The notes under the pieces were generated by a model, which searched no databases, was not told the origin of the DNA, and saw nothing but the letters and a program-made list of their open reading frames with translations. From assembly GCA_026983955.1 (NCBI GenBank), contig JALSTB010000012.1, positions 1-64,000 on the forward strand: 64,000 nucleotides of DNA, read 5' to 3'. The stretch comes from Melioribacteraceae bacterium. Its GTDB lineage: Bacteria; Bacteroidota; Ignavibacteria; Ignavibacteriales; Melioribacteraceae. This document shows, in pieces, positions 45,724 to 53,930 of the stretch; the stretch's first letter is position 1; every line of letters begins with the position of its first letter. Position numbers and translations under genes: made by a program.

Positions 45724-46226
45724 ATCAACCTCCGCCCGCCCTTGGTGAGAATTGTAATTGGATGGGTCCTTTTTTGAATGTAAGAAAATCATTTTTTATG
45801 CCATTTGATTTTTATCACAAAATGTTAATTTTTTTAATGAAAACACTATACCCGTTTTCAGCTAAAAAGCACAAAGGGTGCAACTAAATTTGACGCAATT
45901 TACGCACTTTCGTGTAACCCTTTTGTATTTATTGCTTTGCAAGCATTATGTATTATTTGTACTGCAAAAAAAATTGCACCGGTTTTCAGAAGCATGTTTC
46001 AGGTCCATAAGCCATTTAATTTTTGCTCAAATTTTGTTCCAGATCACAAATATTTTGTTATGAATCGTTTTTCAAACATAAGTTTACAGTGAAATTTAAA
46101 TGTCTCAATACGTCGGAAAAAAATGAGACAAATTCTTATTTTGTTGAAAGTTCCGTCTATAATTTCTGCGGATTTTTCCGATAATCAGGTGGACAATCTG
46201 AATATTCGGAAAAAGGAAAAAAAGGA
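45724..46226. promoter_or_regulatory. 500-bp divergent intergenic region with Crp/Fnr-like sites
   Basis: No credible gene lies here. It holds TTGAT-TTTT-ATCAC (45805-45818) and TTGTT-CCAG-ATCAC (46034-46047), both near the Crp/Fnr pattern TTGAT-N4-ATCAA. A hairpin GCAC-AAAGG-GTGC lies at 45869-45881, and an inverted repeat TGTCTCA/TGAGACA at 46101-46107 and 46124-46130. It separates the reverse M23 unit from the forward histidine kinase, so it should hold promoters for both; TAAATTTG (45885-45892) is a possible forward -7 box. Confidence 0.45.
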
Positions 46227-47825
46227 ATGGATTCCAACCGCACTTCTTCATCAAATTTGTTTGAATCGATAAACCGGCTTATCAGTTCATTGGAAAACTC
46301 CGGAATTGAAAACATTGAAGAATACAGTCCGGCTCTCGTAGGAATTTTTAAAAGGGAAGTCGATGCACTTTGGAACAATCCCGCTTACGGTGCATTGTTA
46401 ACCGACTTGCACGGTAGCATTTTGCGGGTGAACAAATCTTTTCTTCAATTTTCAGGTTATGAAGAAACCGAAGTTCTCGATTCGTCATGGCACGATTTCG
46501 GAATTTCAGTCGAGCGGAAAGAACTTGAAGATAAAGTTGGAAAGTTAATCGATACAAAGGAAGAGTTCGTTCAATTCCATTTTTCATTCTTAACAAAATC
46601 CACACGTGTAATACCAACGGATTACTTTGTTACAACAGTTTTTGATGACGATGGTGAACCGGAAAATTTACTGCATATAATTATTCCACGGGATAATTTT
46701 TCCCGGAGCGAACCTATTCTAAAATATCAAAAAGACTTTCTCCATACGCTGCTAAACAGTATTCCGAATCCGGTTTATTATAAAAACAATAAGGGAATTT
46801 TTCTCGGATGCAATAAAAAGTTTGAGGAACTTTTTAACGAAAAAGTTGATGAAATATTCGGAAAATCGGAATATGAAGTTTTCCCCGGAGAAATAGCCGC
46901 AAAAGAATATAATACGGATTTGGAAGTAGTCAATTCTAAAAATAAAATATCATATTTTGCAACTTATGTGAAAGACGGTAATCAAGCAATTGAACTGGAA
47001 ATAAACAAAACAGTTTTTTTCGATAAGAGCGGAAACGTTGCCGGGATAATCGGGATAATTAACGATGTTACCCGGCAAAAGGAATTTGAAATTACTTTAA
47101 TTGAATCGAAAGAAAAACTAAAAGAATCGAACAAAAACAGGGATAAGTTATTTTCCATTATTTCCCATAACTTGCGCAGTCCGTTCACAACCATATTGGG
47201 CTTTGCGGACATTTTGGTGGACGAGTATGATAGTTACAGTGACGAAGACAAAAAATCATTTGCACTTGAAATACAAAAATCGGCAAGGTTTGCCTATTCA
47301 TTATTGAATAATTTGTTGCTGTGGACAAAATCGCAAATAGGCAATTTACAGCCCAAGGAAGAATTTTTGGATCTCACTCTTTTTGTTGATGAAGTAATTC
47401 ACCGGTTGAAACAAAAAGCCGGAAAGAAAAACATTACCCTGGAAAACAGAATCCCTGAACACTTCAACGTTTTTGCGGATAAAACATTGTTAACCAATAT
47501 TCTGGAAAATATTCTGGATAACGCAATCAAGTTTTCTTATGACAAAAGCAGAGTGGTTATTTCAGCGGACAAAAGCGATGATCATATATTGCTACAAGTA
47601 AAAGATTCGGGTGTTGGCATAAGCGAAGAAAAACTTTCGCGTTTGATAAACTTCGAAGAACACGTTACAAGTTACGGAACCGGAAAAGAGAAAGGGACCG
47701 GACTCGGATTGGTTATCTGTAAAGAATTATTGGGCAAAATGAACGGTGAGCTGGAAATAGAAAGCCAAGAAGACGTGGGAACAACCGTAACTATTAAATT
47801 ACCAAAAACTGTAAAATCCGGTTAA
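46227..47825 (+). CDS. PAS-domain histidine kinase
   Basis: A 532-residue cytosolic sensor kinase without membrane helices. Two PAS-type domains are visible (about 45-160, with GALLTDLHGSILRVNKSFLQ; about 170-290, with NSIPNPVYYKNNKGIFLGCN). A short coil leads to the HisKA domain with the phospho-accepting His314 in IISHNLRSPFTTILGFADIL. The HATPase part has NILENILDNAIKFS (N box), VKDSGVGISEEKL (G1) and GTGLGLVICKELLG (G2). No response regulator is adjacent; the nearest is the CheY-like gene at 53118. It is followed 14 bases later by a small two-helix membrane protein. Confidence 0.92.
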   Translation: MDSNRTSSSNLFESINRLISSLENSGIENIEEYSPALVGIFKREVDALWNNPAYGALLTDLHGSILRVNKSFLQFSGYEETEVLDSSWHDFGISVERKELEDKVGKLIDTKEEFVQFHFSFLTKSTRVIPTDYFVTTVFDDDGEPENLLHIIIPRDNFSRSEPILKYQKDFLHTLLNSIPNPVYYKNNKGIFLGCNKKFEELFNEKVDEIFGKSEYEVFPGEIAAKEYNTDLEVVNSKNKISYFATYVKDGNQAIELEINKTVFFDKSGNVAGIIGIINDVTRQKEFEITLIESKEKLKESNKNRDKLFSIISHNLRSPFTTILGFADILVDEYDSYSDEDKKSFALEIQKSARFAYSLLNNLLLWTKSQIGNLQPKEEFLDLTLFVDEVIHRLKQKAGKKNITLENRIPEHFNVFADKTLLTNILENILDNAIKFSYDKSRVVISADKSDDHILLQVKDSGVGISEEKLSRLINFEEHVTSYGTGKEKGTGLGLVICKELLGKMNGELEIESQEDVGTTVTIKLPKTVKSG

Positions 47826-47839
47826 GGAGTGAAATTATA

Positions 47840-48124
47840 ATGAATGTATCTGTTGATTCGAATAAAACGAAAGAAAAAGTTCAAAAAATTTATTTGAAAA
47901 AAATCGGTCGCGATTATATTGTAATGCCGCTTGAAATAGGTCTTTACGGTTTTGCAGCCGCTTTCACTCTAATAATTTTAATAAGATTGTTCGCATTTTT
48001 AGTGGGAATATTCGAAACTTTCCAAGTAACAATTAACGATTTTCTAACGGCATTGTGGGGTTTCCTGTTCATTTCTTTTGTTACGGTAATTAAGCATTAT
48101 CGCGATATGCAAAAATCACATTAG
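47840..48124 (+). CDS. Small two-helix membrane protein (family member A)
   Basis: A 94-residue protein: charged N-terminal part (1-28), then two membrane helices (about 31-53 and 64-84) and a short charged tail. PLEIGLYGFAAAFTLIILI and VTINDFLTALWGFLFISFV closely match the protein at 53625 (GGVYGFALLFTLILMMKIL; VTVYDVLISFYGFLLSALV). AAGGAG precedes the ATG. It lies 14 bases after the PAS kinase and is probably co-translated with it. I know no named family. A role in the kinase's signalling is inferred from position only. Confidence 0.75.
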   Translation: MNVSVDSNKTKEKVQKIYLKKIGRDYIVMPLEIGLYGFAAAFTLIILIRLFAFLVGIFETFQVTINDFLTALWGFLFISFVTVIKHYRDMQKSH

Positions 48125-50479: not shown

Positions 50480-51431
50480 GTTCCGTTTACTAAAATTTAT
50501 TGCAAAATATTTTTCCCTTGATACGTACCGGAAAATGGTTGAATTTTTCCGTTATTATATCATCGGATTGTACCACCGGATAGACGAACACCATATCTTC
50601 CTTTCGGGCGGCGGAGTGGCATTTTCGCTGTTGTTAAGCATAATTCCCATTTTGCTTTTGGCTTTTGCAATTTTGGGCAACATAATAAATCCGGTCACTT
50701 TGCATAACCAAATCAGTAATTTGATAGATACAATAATCCCGTATCCCGAATATGCCGCATATACGAAAAGGGTAATACTTTCCCGCTTGCCTGAAGTGAT
50801 TGAATATAAAACATTGGCTGCCTACCTTGGTGCAATAGGTCTGTTTTTCACCTCAACTTGGCTTTTCAGCAGTATGCGTACAATTTTGAATAAAGTTTAT
50901 AGGGTAAAGAAAACAAGAAGTGTTTGGATCGGTTTGCTAAGGGATTTCGGAATGGTAATTCTTTTAATATTTCTAATTTTATTATCCACTTTTATTTTTC
51001 CAATTGTACATGTGCTTCTCAGCTCGGCAAAAGAAATTGAGTTTTTAAAAATGTTTATTGTTACCGATTTGGTAAATTCGGTCTTCTCGGTAGCCTCCGT
51101 TGTTGTGATTTTTACCTTGTTTTTCCTTTTTTATATGTTGATTCCTTATGAAAAAATCAACAGAAAAGCGTTATTGGTAAGTGCTTTTTGGGCAACGCTG
51201 CTGTGGGAGTTGGCAAGAAAAATTTTTGAATTTTACATTGCTCACTTTCTTTCGTCGAACAAACTGTACGGAGCTTTTGTTTTGATTATTGTGGTTCTGT
51301 TTTGGATTTTTTATTCTTCTTGCTTATTCATTGTCGGTGCGGAAATCGGACAGCTTTACAGGGAAAAATTAAAGGAAAAAGAATCGCTTTCCCGCTCCAA
51401 TCATAAACTGGCTAATCGAGGTTTAACTTAG
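50472..51431 (+). CDS. YihY/BrkB family membrane protein
   Basis: A 319-residue inner-membrane protein with about six to seven helices. Family marks are [20 protein letters not shown] near the start, [40 protein letters not shown], and [20 protein letters not shown] with [11 protein letters not shown] near the end. Once annotated as RNase BN, it is now regarded as a membrane protein of unknown role. The start overlaps the purL stop, and its end overlaps the convergent STAS gene by 20 bases. Confidence 0.92.
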
Positions 51432-51897
51432 AATAAGCTTCTTCCAAATTTGTGAAGGTTGTGAAAATTTTTGCCAGACCTGTTTCCGTGAAAAGTGGAA
51501 TTTGTTTTTCCGGATCGTACACCAAAAAAACATTTCCGTTAGTCGTTTTTGCCTTTTTCAATGCTCCTACAATTACACCGAAGAAGGTGGAATCTATAAA
51601 TTCACAATTATTCAAATCTATAATTAAATTATTTATTCCTTCATTAAGTATTGTGAAAAGGTATTTTTTGAAATCCCCAGCTTCCGCAAGCGTTGCTCTA
51701 TCCAAATTTACCCGTACAACAACAAAATTATTTGGTTTTGTGGCAATTATTTGAAACGGCCCAACTTTTGCTTCGCTATCGGGCAAATTGCCGTTTACAC
51801 GGGTTACACCGGTAAGTTCCATTTGTTGTTTATCTATTGCGGTTGATATGTTGTATCCGGTTCCGCTTTTCATTTGTTTGAAATATGACCTATTCAT
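51412..51897 (-). CDS. STAS-domain protein (anti-sigma-factor-antagonist-like)
   Basis: A 161-residue protein. The first 50 residues are a variable extension. Residues 55-155 form a STAS domain: VVVRVNLDRATLAEAGDFKK, then LIIDLNNCEFIDSTFFGVIV, in which the serine of EFIDSTFFG is the usual phosphorylation site of SpoIIAA/RsbV-type antagonists, and [16 protein letters not shown] at the end. Such proteins act in partner-switching with a kinase of the RsbW type. No RsbW-like kinase or PP2C phosphatase is in the window. Its 3' end overlaps yihY by 20 bases. Confidence 0.85.
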   Translation of the reverse strand: MNRSYFKQMKSGTGYNISTAIDKQQMELTGVTRVNGNLPDSEAKVGPFQIIATKPNNFVVVRVNLDRATLAEAGDFKKYLFTILNEGINNLIIDLNNCEFIDSTFFGVIVGALKKAKTTNGNVFLVYDPEKQIPLFTETGLAKIFTTFTNLEEAYSKLNLD

Positions 51898-51975
51898 TTC
51901 CCCAGACCTGATTTTGTTTTTATTGTAATTAATTATCGGACTTTTGGTTATAAGCTTTAATCGTATTTTGTGACC

Positions 51976-52194
51976 TCAATCAAAGTCCGTGTTTATGGAT
52001 TTTTCCCGGGATATCATACTCTGAATCATTTTGCTTACTTCATTCCTGTCGTAATCGTTTTCAATTGTATCGGTCATTACGTGCAAAATGCACTCGTTTG
52101 TAATATTCCCGAACTTATCCATTTTATATTGATAAATTTTTGTCCGGTGTTTTATTTTATAGATACCGTCTTGTCCTTCAACCAGTGTGTTCAT
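51976..52194 (-). CDS. Hypothetical small protein
   Basis: A 72-residue soluble protein I do not recognise (MNTLVEGQDGIYKIKHRTKI at the start). It contains YQYKMDKFGNITNECILHVM and a charged C-terminal helix. GGAGAAG stands before the ATG at 52194, which favours this start over the longer frame to 52269. It belongs to a row of reverse genes with the STAS protein and small membrane proteins. Confidence 0.55.
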   Translation of the reverse strand: MNTLVEGQDGIYKIKHRTKIYQYKMDKFGNITNECILHVMTDTIENDYDRNEVSKMIQSMISREKSINTDFD

Positions 52195-52314
52195 TTTACT
52201 TCTCCGGTTATTAAATTTTACTATCACAAAGGAAATGAAAAATTTCCGTAAGTATGTGATTTGTAACAACTTATAATCGGTAAAAAGGATTGGTTTTTTA
52301 ATTGTTTTATAAAG

Positions 52315-52590
52315 TTAAAACTTTTTATAGCGTGTTATTTCGAGAAGGGCAAAAAGATAAGAAAGAATAAATCCTGCAAATGCTATAATTAAATCGAATA
52401 TTTCGATATTAAAATCATATTCGCTGATAAAAAAGTATTTAAGAATTTTAATGGAAAGTATGAGAATGAAGAAAAGAACAAAACCCGATATGGCCGATTT
52501 AAGAGGACGGAACAAATATTTTTTCAATTTGTAAATAAAGCCGCCGGCTTGAGCTTCAATATTATTCCATCTGTTTTGTTCAAATTCCAT
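52315..52590 (-). CDS. Small two-helix membrane protein (family member B)
   Basis: A 91-residue protein: charged N-terminal 28 residues, helix 1 (about 32-54) and helix 2 (about 65-84), then a basic end (EITRYKKF). PLKSAISGFVLFFILILSIK and EIFDLIIAFAGFILSYLFAL line up with members A and D: a proline or turn before the first helix, G-F two residues into it, F-x-L-I-L, an acidic residue before the second helix, and G-F in its middle. A near-perfect Crp-like palindrome stands 47 bases upstream of its start. Function unknown. Confidence 0.7.
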   Translation of the reverse strand: MEFEQNRWNNIEAQAGGFIYKLKKYLFRPLKSAISGFVLFFILILSIKILKYFFISEYDFNIEIFDLIIAFAGFILSYLFALLEITRYKKF

Positions 52591-52636
52591 AAAAATTTAA
52601 TTTTTATTTTTATAAATATGTTTATTCATCGTATTC

Positions 52637-52658
52637 AAATGTGACGGAAATCACATTT
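52637..52658. promoter_or_regulatory. Crp-like palindrome
   Basis: AAATGTGA-CGGAAA-TCACATTT: two perfect 8-base arms with a 6-base centre, containing the full TGTGA-N6-TCACA core of Crp-family sites. It lies 47-68 bases upstream of the start of the small membrane protein gene at 52590, a suitable distance for an activator. Confidence 0.6.
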
Positions 52659-52675: not shown

Positions 52676-52948
52676 TTATTTCGGCTGTTTTGCGTACAGT
52701 TGAAAAAATCTTATCGCAAAAATATTTCCGAAAGCGAGTAAACTGACTAATACTTCGTTTATTCCCAATGCAAAATGTTCGTTTACAAAGAAAGCAAGAA
52801 TGTTAAGTTTTATTAAAAGGAACAGAACCAAAGCGAACCATAATAATGCGTCGCTTACCGCCGTTTTAATTGATTTGAACAGATGTGTGTTGAATGTTGA
52901 AACTGATACTGTTTGTTCTAATTCTCTTGTATACAATTTTTTCCTCAC
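52676..52948 (-). CDS. Small two-helix membrane protein (family member C, diverged)
   Basis: A 90-residue protein with two hydrophobic helices (about 33-52 and 62-80). LFKSIKTAVSDALLWFALVL and INEVLVSLLAFGNIFAIRFF resemble members A, B and D but less closely; the first-helix G-F is missing. The start is uncertain: GTG at 52948, or TTG at 52936 with a GAGGA ribosome site in front. It lies just upstream of member B on the same strand, separated by the Crp-like palindrome. Confidence 0.62.
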   Translation of the reverse strand: MRKKLYTRELEQTVSVSTFNTHLFKSIKTAVSDALLWFALVLFLLIKLNILAFFVNEHFALGINEVLVSLLAFGNIFAIRFFQLYAKQPK

Positions 52949-53117
52949 TATTAATTAAAATTTCTAACCCCAATTAAATGTAAAGCAATACCCAATGCTG
53001 TGATGGAAAGCAAACGGTGTTAAAAAATAAGTCACCTTAATTGTTTCGTTTTGAAACCGATGATATTACCGTATATTCTTTAATTTTATTATATTGGGAA
53101 AAGCAAAAAGGTAAGTC

Positions 53118-53501
53118 ATGGAAATCAAAAAAATTTTAATAATTGACGATAATAAAAACGAACAGCTGTTTTTAACACGGGCCCTTTCCAAATTGTATTC
53201 ATGTGAAGTTATAACGGCAGATAACGGTCAACAAGGATTGCAAAAAATAGTTTTGGATAATCCGGATCTTATTTTTCTTGATGTAATGATGCCCGTGATG
53301 GACGGAATACAAATGCTTGAAATTCTTAGAGTACAACATCCGCAAATTACCACCCCGGTAATTGCGCTTACAGCACGTAGTGACGGTGCGACTTTAAATA
53401 AACTGCTCACACTAAATGTTGACGAATATTTGCTCAAACCTATCAATTTTGAGCAAATTGCTAATAAAATTGATAAAATTGCGGGAAAAAGTAACTTTTA
53501 G
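53118..53501 (+). CDS. Single-domain response regulator (CheY-like)
   Basis: A 127-residue receiver domain with no output domain. The acidic pocket is IIDDNKNE at the start, the phosphorylated Asp55 is in FLDVMMPVMDG, the threonine is in ALTARSDG, and Lys107 is in YLLKPINF. AAGG precedes the ATG. It may receive phosphate from the PAS kinase at 46227, the nearest kinase, but this is inference. It is flanked by members C and D of the small membrane family. Confidence 0.92.
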   Translation: MEIKKILIIDDNKNEQLFLTRALSKLYSCEVITADNGQQGLQKIVLDNPDLIFLDVMMPVMDGIQMLEILRVQHPQITTPVIALTARSDGATLNKLLTLNVDEYLLKPINFEQIANKIDKIAGKSNF

Positions 53502-53624: not shown

Positions 53625-53930
53625 ATGGCTGAAGTAAAACACATATTTACTTCGGATGATTTGTTCACAACGCTGAATACAAGCCGAAATTCTAAGAAAA
53701 TTGTGCAAGTTTTCCTTTTCGGAACAATTCGCGGCGGGGTTTACGGTTTTGCTCTTCTTTTCACTCTCATTTTAATGATGAAAATTTTGATTTTCGTTTT
53801 TTCATCCGCAAGTCAATTGAATGTAACGGTTTACGATGTTTTAATTTCCTTTTACGGTTTTTTACTTTCCGCATTGGTTAATTTTCTCTCGCTAATTAAA
53901 AAGTATCTGCATCTCTCACGAAGCCGTTAG
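53625..53930 (+). CDS. Small two-helix membrane protein (family member D)
   Basis: A 101-residue protein: a charged N-terminal segment (1-35), helix 1 (about 38-60) and helix 2 (about 71-90), and a basic tail (KKYLHLSRSR). GGVYGFALLFTLILMMKIL and VTVYDVLISFYGFLLSALV match member A (47840) best, with identical YGFA, FTLI and GFL positions. It lies 124 bases after the response regulator gene on the same strand. An ATCACAAA half-site (53530-53537) stands about 90 bases upstream. Function unknown. Confidence 0.75.
   Translation: MAEVKHIFTSDDLFTTLNTSRNSKKIVQVFLFGTIRGGVYGFALLFTLILMMKILIFVFSSASQLNVTVYDVLISFYGFLLSALVNFLSLIKKYLHLSRSR

What the first reader, a model, noticed from the sequence alone, without database searches (positions are those of the whole stretch)
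52637..52658. Near-ideal Crp-family palindrome between two members of the small membrane family
AAATGTGA-N6-TCACATTT has perfect 8-base arms and sits 47-68 bases upstream of the member B start, where an activator would bind. No Crp/Fnr gene is in the window, so the island would belong to a wider regulon.
Basis: partly seen in the sequence, partly recalled or inferred. Interest (0 to 1): 0.52.

Follow-up and report, generated by a model that had tools for sequence, protein, structure and literature searches.

The report
CRP-type binding site of a regulon
A near-perfect binding site for a cyclic-AMP-receptor-type gene switch sits in front of a small membrane protein gene in a poorly studied bacterium, and matching sites in related species suggest that the switch controls a set of signalling and membrane genes.

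Summary
The palindrome is real: AAATGTGA-N6-TCACATTT at 52637-52658, its core 49 bp upstream of the 91-aa membrane-protein gene 52315-52590. Best reading: the operator of a CRP-type activator at a Bacteroidota-type promoter. In the 3.12-Mb genome (family Melioribacteraceae) TKTGAYNNNNRTCAMA occurs 27 times against 4 for its reversed control; all 23 sites with a TGTGA half lie at or near a gene start (6 overlap the edge of a called frame or a short frame), while the 4 with two TTTGA halves lie inside genes. All three genus relatives keep an exact site before the homologous gene (35-59 bp; proteins 28-75% identical). Neighbouring genes (paralogue, 72-aa, STAS) carry weaker sites. The likely regulator is the Crp paralogue on contig 176, with close orthologs in 57 of 58 genomes and helix RETISR; in other genera its own gene carries such a box (16 of 77 loci, control 0 of 77; 8 of the 16 are TTTGA-type), but not in this genome. 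A TAnnTTTG element is enriched 20-22 nt after the site, giving class II geometry. One class III cyclase exists. The membrane family is unnamed, has 10 copies here and was found only in this order. Binding, activation and cAMP dependence are inferred.

The parts
52637..52658 (.). CRP-type operator (core 52640-52655) of the 91-aa gene
   Evidence: exact site kept before the homologous gene in G001, G003, G002
52613..52620 (-). putative -7 element CATATTTA (2 mismatches to TAnnTTTG), 20 nt after the site
   Evidence: inference for this promoter
52315..52590 (-). 91-aa membrane protein, two hydrophobic regions; the finding's 'member B'; inferred target
52676..52948 (-). paralogue of the small membrane family; start may be TTG at 52936
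52999..53014 (.). weaker CRP-type site TGTGATGGAAAGCAAA between the divergent paralogue 52676-52948 and response regulator 53118-53501
   Evidence: p 0.002, shuffle floor; kept in G001
52255..52270 (.). weaker CRP-type site, 60 bp before the 72-aa gene
   Evidence: (p 0.012); G001, G003, G002 p 0.014, 0.016, 0.006
51976..52194 (-). 72-aa protein of unknown function, conserved in the genus cluster
   Evidence: no PHROGs hit
51969..51984 (.). CRP-type site TGTGACCTCAATCAAA, 71 bp before the STAS gene; overlaps the end of the 72-aa gene
   Evidence: (p 0.004)
51412..51897 (-). STAS-domain protein, 161 aa
   Evidence: Pfam STAS 3.5e-13
53118..53501 (+). single-domain response regulator
   Evidence: Response_reg 2.1e-24
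53625..53930 (+). small membrane family member after the response regulator; no site directly upstream (p 0.395)
45804..45819 (.). CRP-type site TTTGATTTTTATCACA; 11 bp from a 124-aa frame, about 400 bp before kinase 46227-47825; target unclear
46033..46048 (.). weaker site TTTGTTCCAGATCACA, 178 bp before the kinase gene
   Evidence: p 0.004
46227..47825 (+). PAS-domain histidine kinase
47840..48124 (+). small membrane family member directly after the kinase
   Evidence: own weak site p 0.022

Best explanation
The palindrome is an operator for the Crp/Fnr-family regulator encoded on contig 176 (227 aa, helix TSRETISRTL). Supported by sequence: the motif is in excess, lies at gene starts, is kept before the homologous gene in genus relatives, and a matching box precedes this regulator's own gene in part of its orthologs in other genera. 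Inferred: the dimer, probably with cAMP bound, sits at about -40 and activates a TAnnTTTG-type promoter (class II) of the small membrane protein, while neighbouring genes are switched by weaker sites of their own. Crp would thus tie a membrane and signalling module (small membrane proteins, STAS proteins, PAS kinases, response regulators) to carbon or energy state.
For: Excess over reversed control 8 vs 1 and 27 vs 4. 23 of 23 sites with a TGTGA half at or near a gene start, 4 of 4 two-TTTGA sites inside genes. Exact site 47, 59 and 35 bp before the homologous gene in 3 of 3 genus relatives. Six further gene sets with sites in own genome and a genus relative. Crp-176 orthologs in 57 of 58 genomes; box before this gene in 8 of 30 loci at p<=0.01 and 16 of 77 loci vs 0 of 77 reversed control. 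Helix R-E-T-I-S-R fits TGTGA reading as described for E. coli CRP (PMC11253593, passages). TAnnTTTG at 20-22 nt: 7 vs 1.1 expected, 28 own promoters. One class III cyclase.
Against: No binding or expression data. In the window's own genome, G001 and G003 the crp gene has no box. Half of the 16 crp boxes are TTTGA-TCAAA type. The exact TGTGA motif is not in excess outside the family (6 vs 13) although the helix is the same. At this promoter the -7 element has 2 mismatches. By eye against the recalled E. coli CRP sequence, the Thr127-Ser128 pair of the cAMP pocket is replaced. Two other Crp paralogues exist.
Confidence: 0.78

Rival explanations
1. The site belongs to another Crp/Fnr paralogue of the genome (contig 75 or 177), for example a redox or NO sensor.
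For: Contig 75 has the similar helix THREVISR, and it is present in own genome, G001 and G003.
Against: The contig-75 protein has a relative in only 7 of 58 genomes at E<=1e-30 and not in G002, G017, G028 or G029, which carry exact sites. The contig-177 helix reads SRQTVNS. The boxes at crp genes are at orthologs of the contig-176 gene; the other two genes were not surveyed for boxes in relatives.
Confidence: 0.13
2. Crp binds here as a repressor or roadblock rather than as an activator.
For: Boxes 4-44 bp before the crp start codon in other genera would suit autorepression; at this promoter the -7 element is poor.
Against: Over 28 own sites the -7 element peaks at class II spacing.
Confidence: 0.15
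3. The inverted repeat is an RNA hairpin, such as a terminator of the paralogue 52676-52948.
For: It can fold: -8.9 kcal/mol, z -1.9 here; -11.6, z -4.7 in G003.
Against: No T-run follows on the minus strand and the terminator scan finds none here. In relatives the 16-bp core is kept while the outer arms change.
Confidence: 0.03
4. Chance palindrome in AT-rich DNA.
For: Weak matches in the window are no commoner than in shuffles.
Against: Exact sites exceed the control, and the site recurs before the homologous gene in 3 of 3 genus relatives though the proteins are only 75, 33 and 28% identical.
Confidence: 0.01

Closest known systems
E. coli CRP (CAP) and its TGTGA-N6-TCACA class II sites
   Same: Same core motif; Arg-Glu-x-x-x-Arg recognition helix (PMC11253593, passages); site centre near -41.5 (class II position recalled).
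   Different: Half-sites TTTGA are also used, the helix has Ser where CRP has Gly, the promoter has a Bacteroidota-type -7 box, and the targets are signalling and membrane genes. Ligand untested.
CRP/FNR homologues of Ignavibacteria in an anammox microbiome (PMC8510549; abstract and passages)
   Same: CRP/FNR-family regulators of the same class of bacteria, predicted to sense carbon.
   Different: Those were scanned with a Bacteroides MalR matrix; the term TGTGA has 0 occurrences in that main text.
FNR-type sites TTGAT-N4-ATCAA
   Same: The inner part of many sites here (TTTGAT, ATCAAA halves) resembles it; Ser in the helix as in FNR (recalled).
   Different: In this genome every site near a gene start has at least one TGTGA half; TTTGAT-N4-ATCAAA occurs 0 times.

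Membership tests
CRP-type operator | TGTGA-N6-TCACA palindrome | tested here: met
   exact match at 52640-52655
CRP-type operator | genome-wide excess and location at gene starts | tested here: met
   8 vs 1, 27 vs 4; 23 of 23 at or near a start, 6 of them overlapping the edge of a called frame or a short frame
CRP-type operator | conserved before the same gene in relatives | tested here: met
   3 of 3 genus relatives
CRP-type operator | class II spacing to the promoter | tested here: inconclusive
   met for the site set; weak -7 element at this promoter
CRP-type operator | bound by the regulator | not testable with these tools
   needs gel shift or ChIP
CRP (regulator protein) | cNMP-binding domain plus Crp-type HTH | tested here: met
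   Pfam cNMP_binding 2.9e-27; NCBIfam CRP model 1.5e-30 over residues 19-218, but 106 bits against a cut-off of 266
CRP (regulator protein) | NCBIfam equivalog cut-off for E. coli-type CRP | tested here: not met
   106.3 of 266 bits: CRP-like, not filed as the CRP equivalog
CRP (regulator protein) | Arg180, Glu181, Arg185 equivalents | tested here: met
   TSRETISR invariant in 9 aligned orthologs; seen in 79 of 80 named loci, 1 unreadable
CRP (regulator protein) | cAMP dependence | not testable with these tools
   Arg-Ser pocket pair present; Thr-Ser pair replaced, by eye; one class III cyclase
CRP (regulator protein) | activating regions AR1-AR3 | not tested
   none

The most novel reading that the evidence does not exclude
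In this Melioribacteraceae genus a cAMP-Crp system has been redirected from central carbon genes (sites between crp and a gapA-like gene, and before an enolase-like gene, in other genera) to a lineage-specific membrane-signalling module, in which an expanded family of two-helix membrane proteins, STAS proteins, response regulators and PAS kinases are given Crp promoters of their own. A recognition helix combining CRP-like Arg and FNR-like Ser would explain the tolerance of TGTGA and TTTGA halves.
Probability: 0.4. Interest if true: 0.55.

Novelty: new member of a known kind. Interest (0 to 1): 0.42.

Why it matters
It gives a candidate regulon, a likely regulator and a promoter geometry for Melioribacteraceae, where the one published prediction found (PMC8510549, passages) borrowed a Bacteroides matrix. 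It also gives a functional handle (shared control with STAS, response-regulator and PAS-kinase genes) on a small membrane protein family without a match in the libraries scanned.

Tried and rejected
Counting loose matches in the window: no excess (23 vs 21.1 expected), so weak sites were used only with a matrix, shuffles and relatives. Sites with two TTTGA halves in this genome (4 of 27) lie inside genes and were treated as chance. TTTGAT-N4-ATCAAA in 58 genomes is in moderate excess (80 vs 31 in the window's family with own genome, 43 vs 19 in other families, 0 vs 0 in own genome, sums); other lineages may use that half-site; not followed up. TATAAT at fixed spacing: no significant peak (p 0.076). 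Terminator or RNA hairpin: rejected. Contig-75 paralogue as regulator: disfavoured. No structure job was run: the stated rule does not list loci from the genome search, so the family alignment was not sent, and a single-sequence model of a 91-aa membrane protein would have said little.

Full report
WHAT IS THERE. AAATGTGA-CGGAAA-TCACATTT is at 52637-52658 as described. Its 16-bp core lies 49 bp upstream of the ATG of the 91-aa gene 52315-52590 and 20 bp after the stop codon of the paralogue 52676-52948, both on the minus strand. It is the only exact TGTGA-N6-TCACA of the window; looser matches are no commoner than in shuffled DNA (23 vs 21.1).

GENOME. The window lies in a 3.12-Mb draft of 190 contigs. 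Exact TGTGA-N6-TCACA occurs 8 times against 1 for the reversed pattern, 72 against 44 with one mismatch allowed, and TKTGAYNNNNRTCAMA 27 against 4. I read the surroundings of all 27. Of the 23 with at least one TGTGA half, 22 have the start of a called frame (60 codons or more) 11-142 bp away; the last (C40:18214) lies in the 5' part of a STAS frame, before a likely inner ATG. Seventeen of the 23 are in gaps between called frames; 6 overlap the end of a called frame or a short one (51969, C37, C40:18214, C51, C120:41615, C178). The 4 with two TTTGA halves are inside long frames. Gene starts are my own frame calls. Three of the 27 are in this 64-kb window.

CONSERVATION. The 91-aa protein has a match in 25 of 58 genomes, own included. 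In the three genus relatives G001, G003 and G002 the cluster paralogue / 91-aa / 72-aa / STAS is kept, and the homologue of the 91-aa gene has an exact site 47, 59 and 35 bp upstream; protein identities are 75, 33 and 28%. A matrix built from 19 own sites outside this cluster (500 shuffles, floor 0.002) finds sites before the 72-aa gene (own p 0.012; relatives 0.014, 0.016, 0.006), the STAS gene (0.004; 0.010, 0.004, 0.008) and the paralogue (0.002; 0.004, 0.034, 0.096) (its own 72-aa start was 3 bp off, corrected). Six further gene sets have sites in own genome and a genus relative: a 325-aa protein (G001 and G003), a PAS sensor, a lipoprotein, a 93/109-aa protein (its G001 site lies inside another called frame), a 64-aa protein, and a secreted protein (G002). 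One fetched G001 site (L104) and one G003 site (L081) matched no own target. TGTGAYNNNNRTCACA counts against the reversed control are 21 vs 1 in the genus (4 genomes), 28 vs 9 in the other 30 genomes of the family and 6 vs 13 in 24 genomes of other families (sums): the excess fades with distance.

THE SMALL MEMBRANE FAMILY. The profile finds 10 members in this genome. In a phylum sample 12 of 296 genomes match, all in the same order (at most 17 candidates per genome were scored, so misses are possible). Members scanned have no Pfam match over its cut-off (4 members), and no NCBIfam or PHROGs match at E up to 0.01. Of the 10, five have a matrix site at p<=0.02 directly upstream (52315, 52676, contig 18, and two on contig 82). 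Three more have one only before the preceding gene of the presumed operon (53625 p 0.395 itself; 47840 p 0.022 itself; contig 124 p 0.299 itself). The third on contig 82 is doubtful (p 0.134) and contig 120 has none (p 0.984). Outside the genus 9 of 22 tested members have p<=0.05 and 13 do not (the G006 hit was left out for want of a called frame, and hits without a fetched locus were not tested).

THE REGULATOR. Six cNMP-binding matches exist, none on this contig. Three are full Crp/Fnr-type regulators, on contigs 176, 177 and 75. The contig-176 protein has a close relative in 57 of 58 genomes, own included (others 64-99% identity; G002 only in part at a contig end; G015 weak only). In 8 of 30 loci of this gene the upstream region has a site at p<=0.01 (single-base shuffles). 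Exact sites lie at this gene in G005, G008, G016, G029 and G032. Among 80 named loci, 77 could be tested (1 unreadable, 2 without enough upstream): 16 have a site with at most 1 mismatch within 120 bp, against 0 of 77 for the reversed pattern and 0.7% in shuffles. Eight of the 16 have a TGTGA half; the other 8 are of TTTGA-TCAAA type, some loci are near-duplicates, and many genomes recur. In the window's genome, G001 and G003 there is no such box. In G005, G008, G016 and G032 the box lies between crp and a divergent gene that I recognise as glyceraldehyde-3-phosphate dehydrogenase, and in G021 one lies before an enolase-like gene (no family scan). The helix TSRETISR keeps the Arg, Glu and Arg that read TGTGA in E. 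coli CRP (PMC11253593, passages), with Ser where I recall FNR having Ser. The protein scores 106 bits on the NCBIfam CRP model, below its cut-off of 266: CRP-like, not the CRP equivalog. The contig-75 paralogue is in 7 of 58 genomes only. Named contigs place the genus in Melioribacteraceae; by matching coordinates G001 is isolate 134-614, G003 isolate 356-308 and G002 BMS3Abin04.

MECHANISM. TAnnTTTG, the sigma-A -7 box at -12 to -5 in a flavobacterium (PMC9723704, passages), is enriched 20-22 nt after the site: with at most 1 mismatch 7 vs 1.1 expected among 28 own promoters (p 0.0005, the floor, for that window; 0.002 for the best of any window). One search agrees with 43 promoters, orthologs included. 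At divergent sites I chose the direction. The site centre would be at -39.5 to -41.5. At the window promoter itself the element is poor (CATATTTA). The one class III cyclase has KTIGD and YDIWGDTVN, recalled as adenylyl-type, after a sensor-like N-terminal part. cAMP as ligand is plausible but not shown.

LITERATURE. Searches (listings) showed no description of this motif or regulon in Ignavibacteria; the nearest, PMC8510549 (abstract and passages), predicts MalR-like control with a Bacteroides matrix. The library holds open-licence papers only.

VERDICT. It is a known kind of regulation, newly placed, with an unusual target set.

Noticed in passing
window 52676-52948: The start of this gene may be TTG at 52936 rather than GTG at 52948: the GTG is out of frame in G001 while the TTG is kept.
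   Followed up: partly
L025 1589-2020; L027 1000-1515: Two further STAS-domain genes of the genome have a CRP-type site upstream, so three STAS genes share it.
   Followed up: partly
L119 1405-1448; L075; L074: The family member next to a peptide-chain-release-factor-like gene has two tandem CRP-like boxes 28 bp apart, with a similar layout in G001 and G003.
   Followed up: partly
L125 349-2206: Contig 82 holds small membrane gene - response-regulator-like gene - small membrane gene - small membrane gene, with CRP-like boxes between them.
   Followed up: partly
L127 1-2094: The only class III cyclase found in the genome is fused to a sensor-like N-terminal part; a one-mismatch CRP-type site lies after it, 99 bp before the next gene.
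   Followed up: no
L085, L087, L089, L090: In four other genera a CRP box lies between crp and a divergent gapA-like gene.
   Followed up: partly
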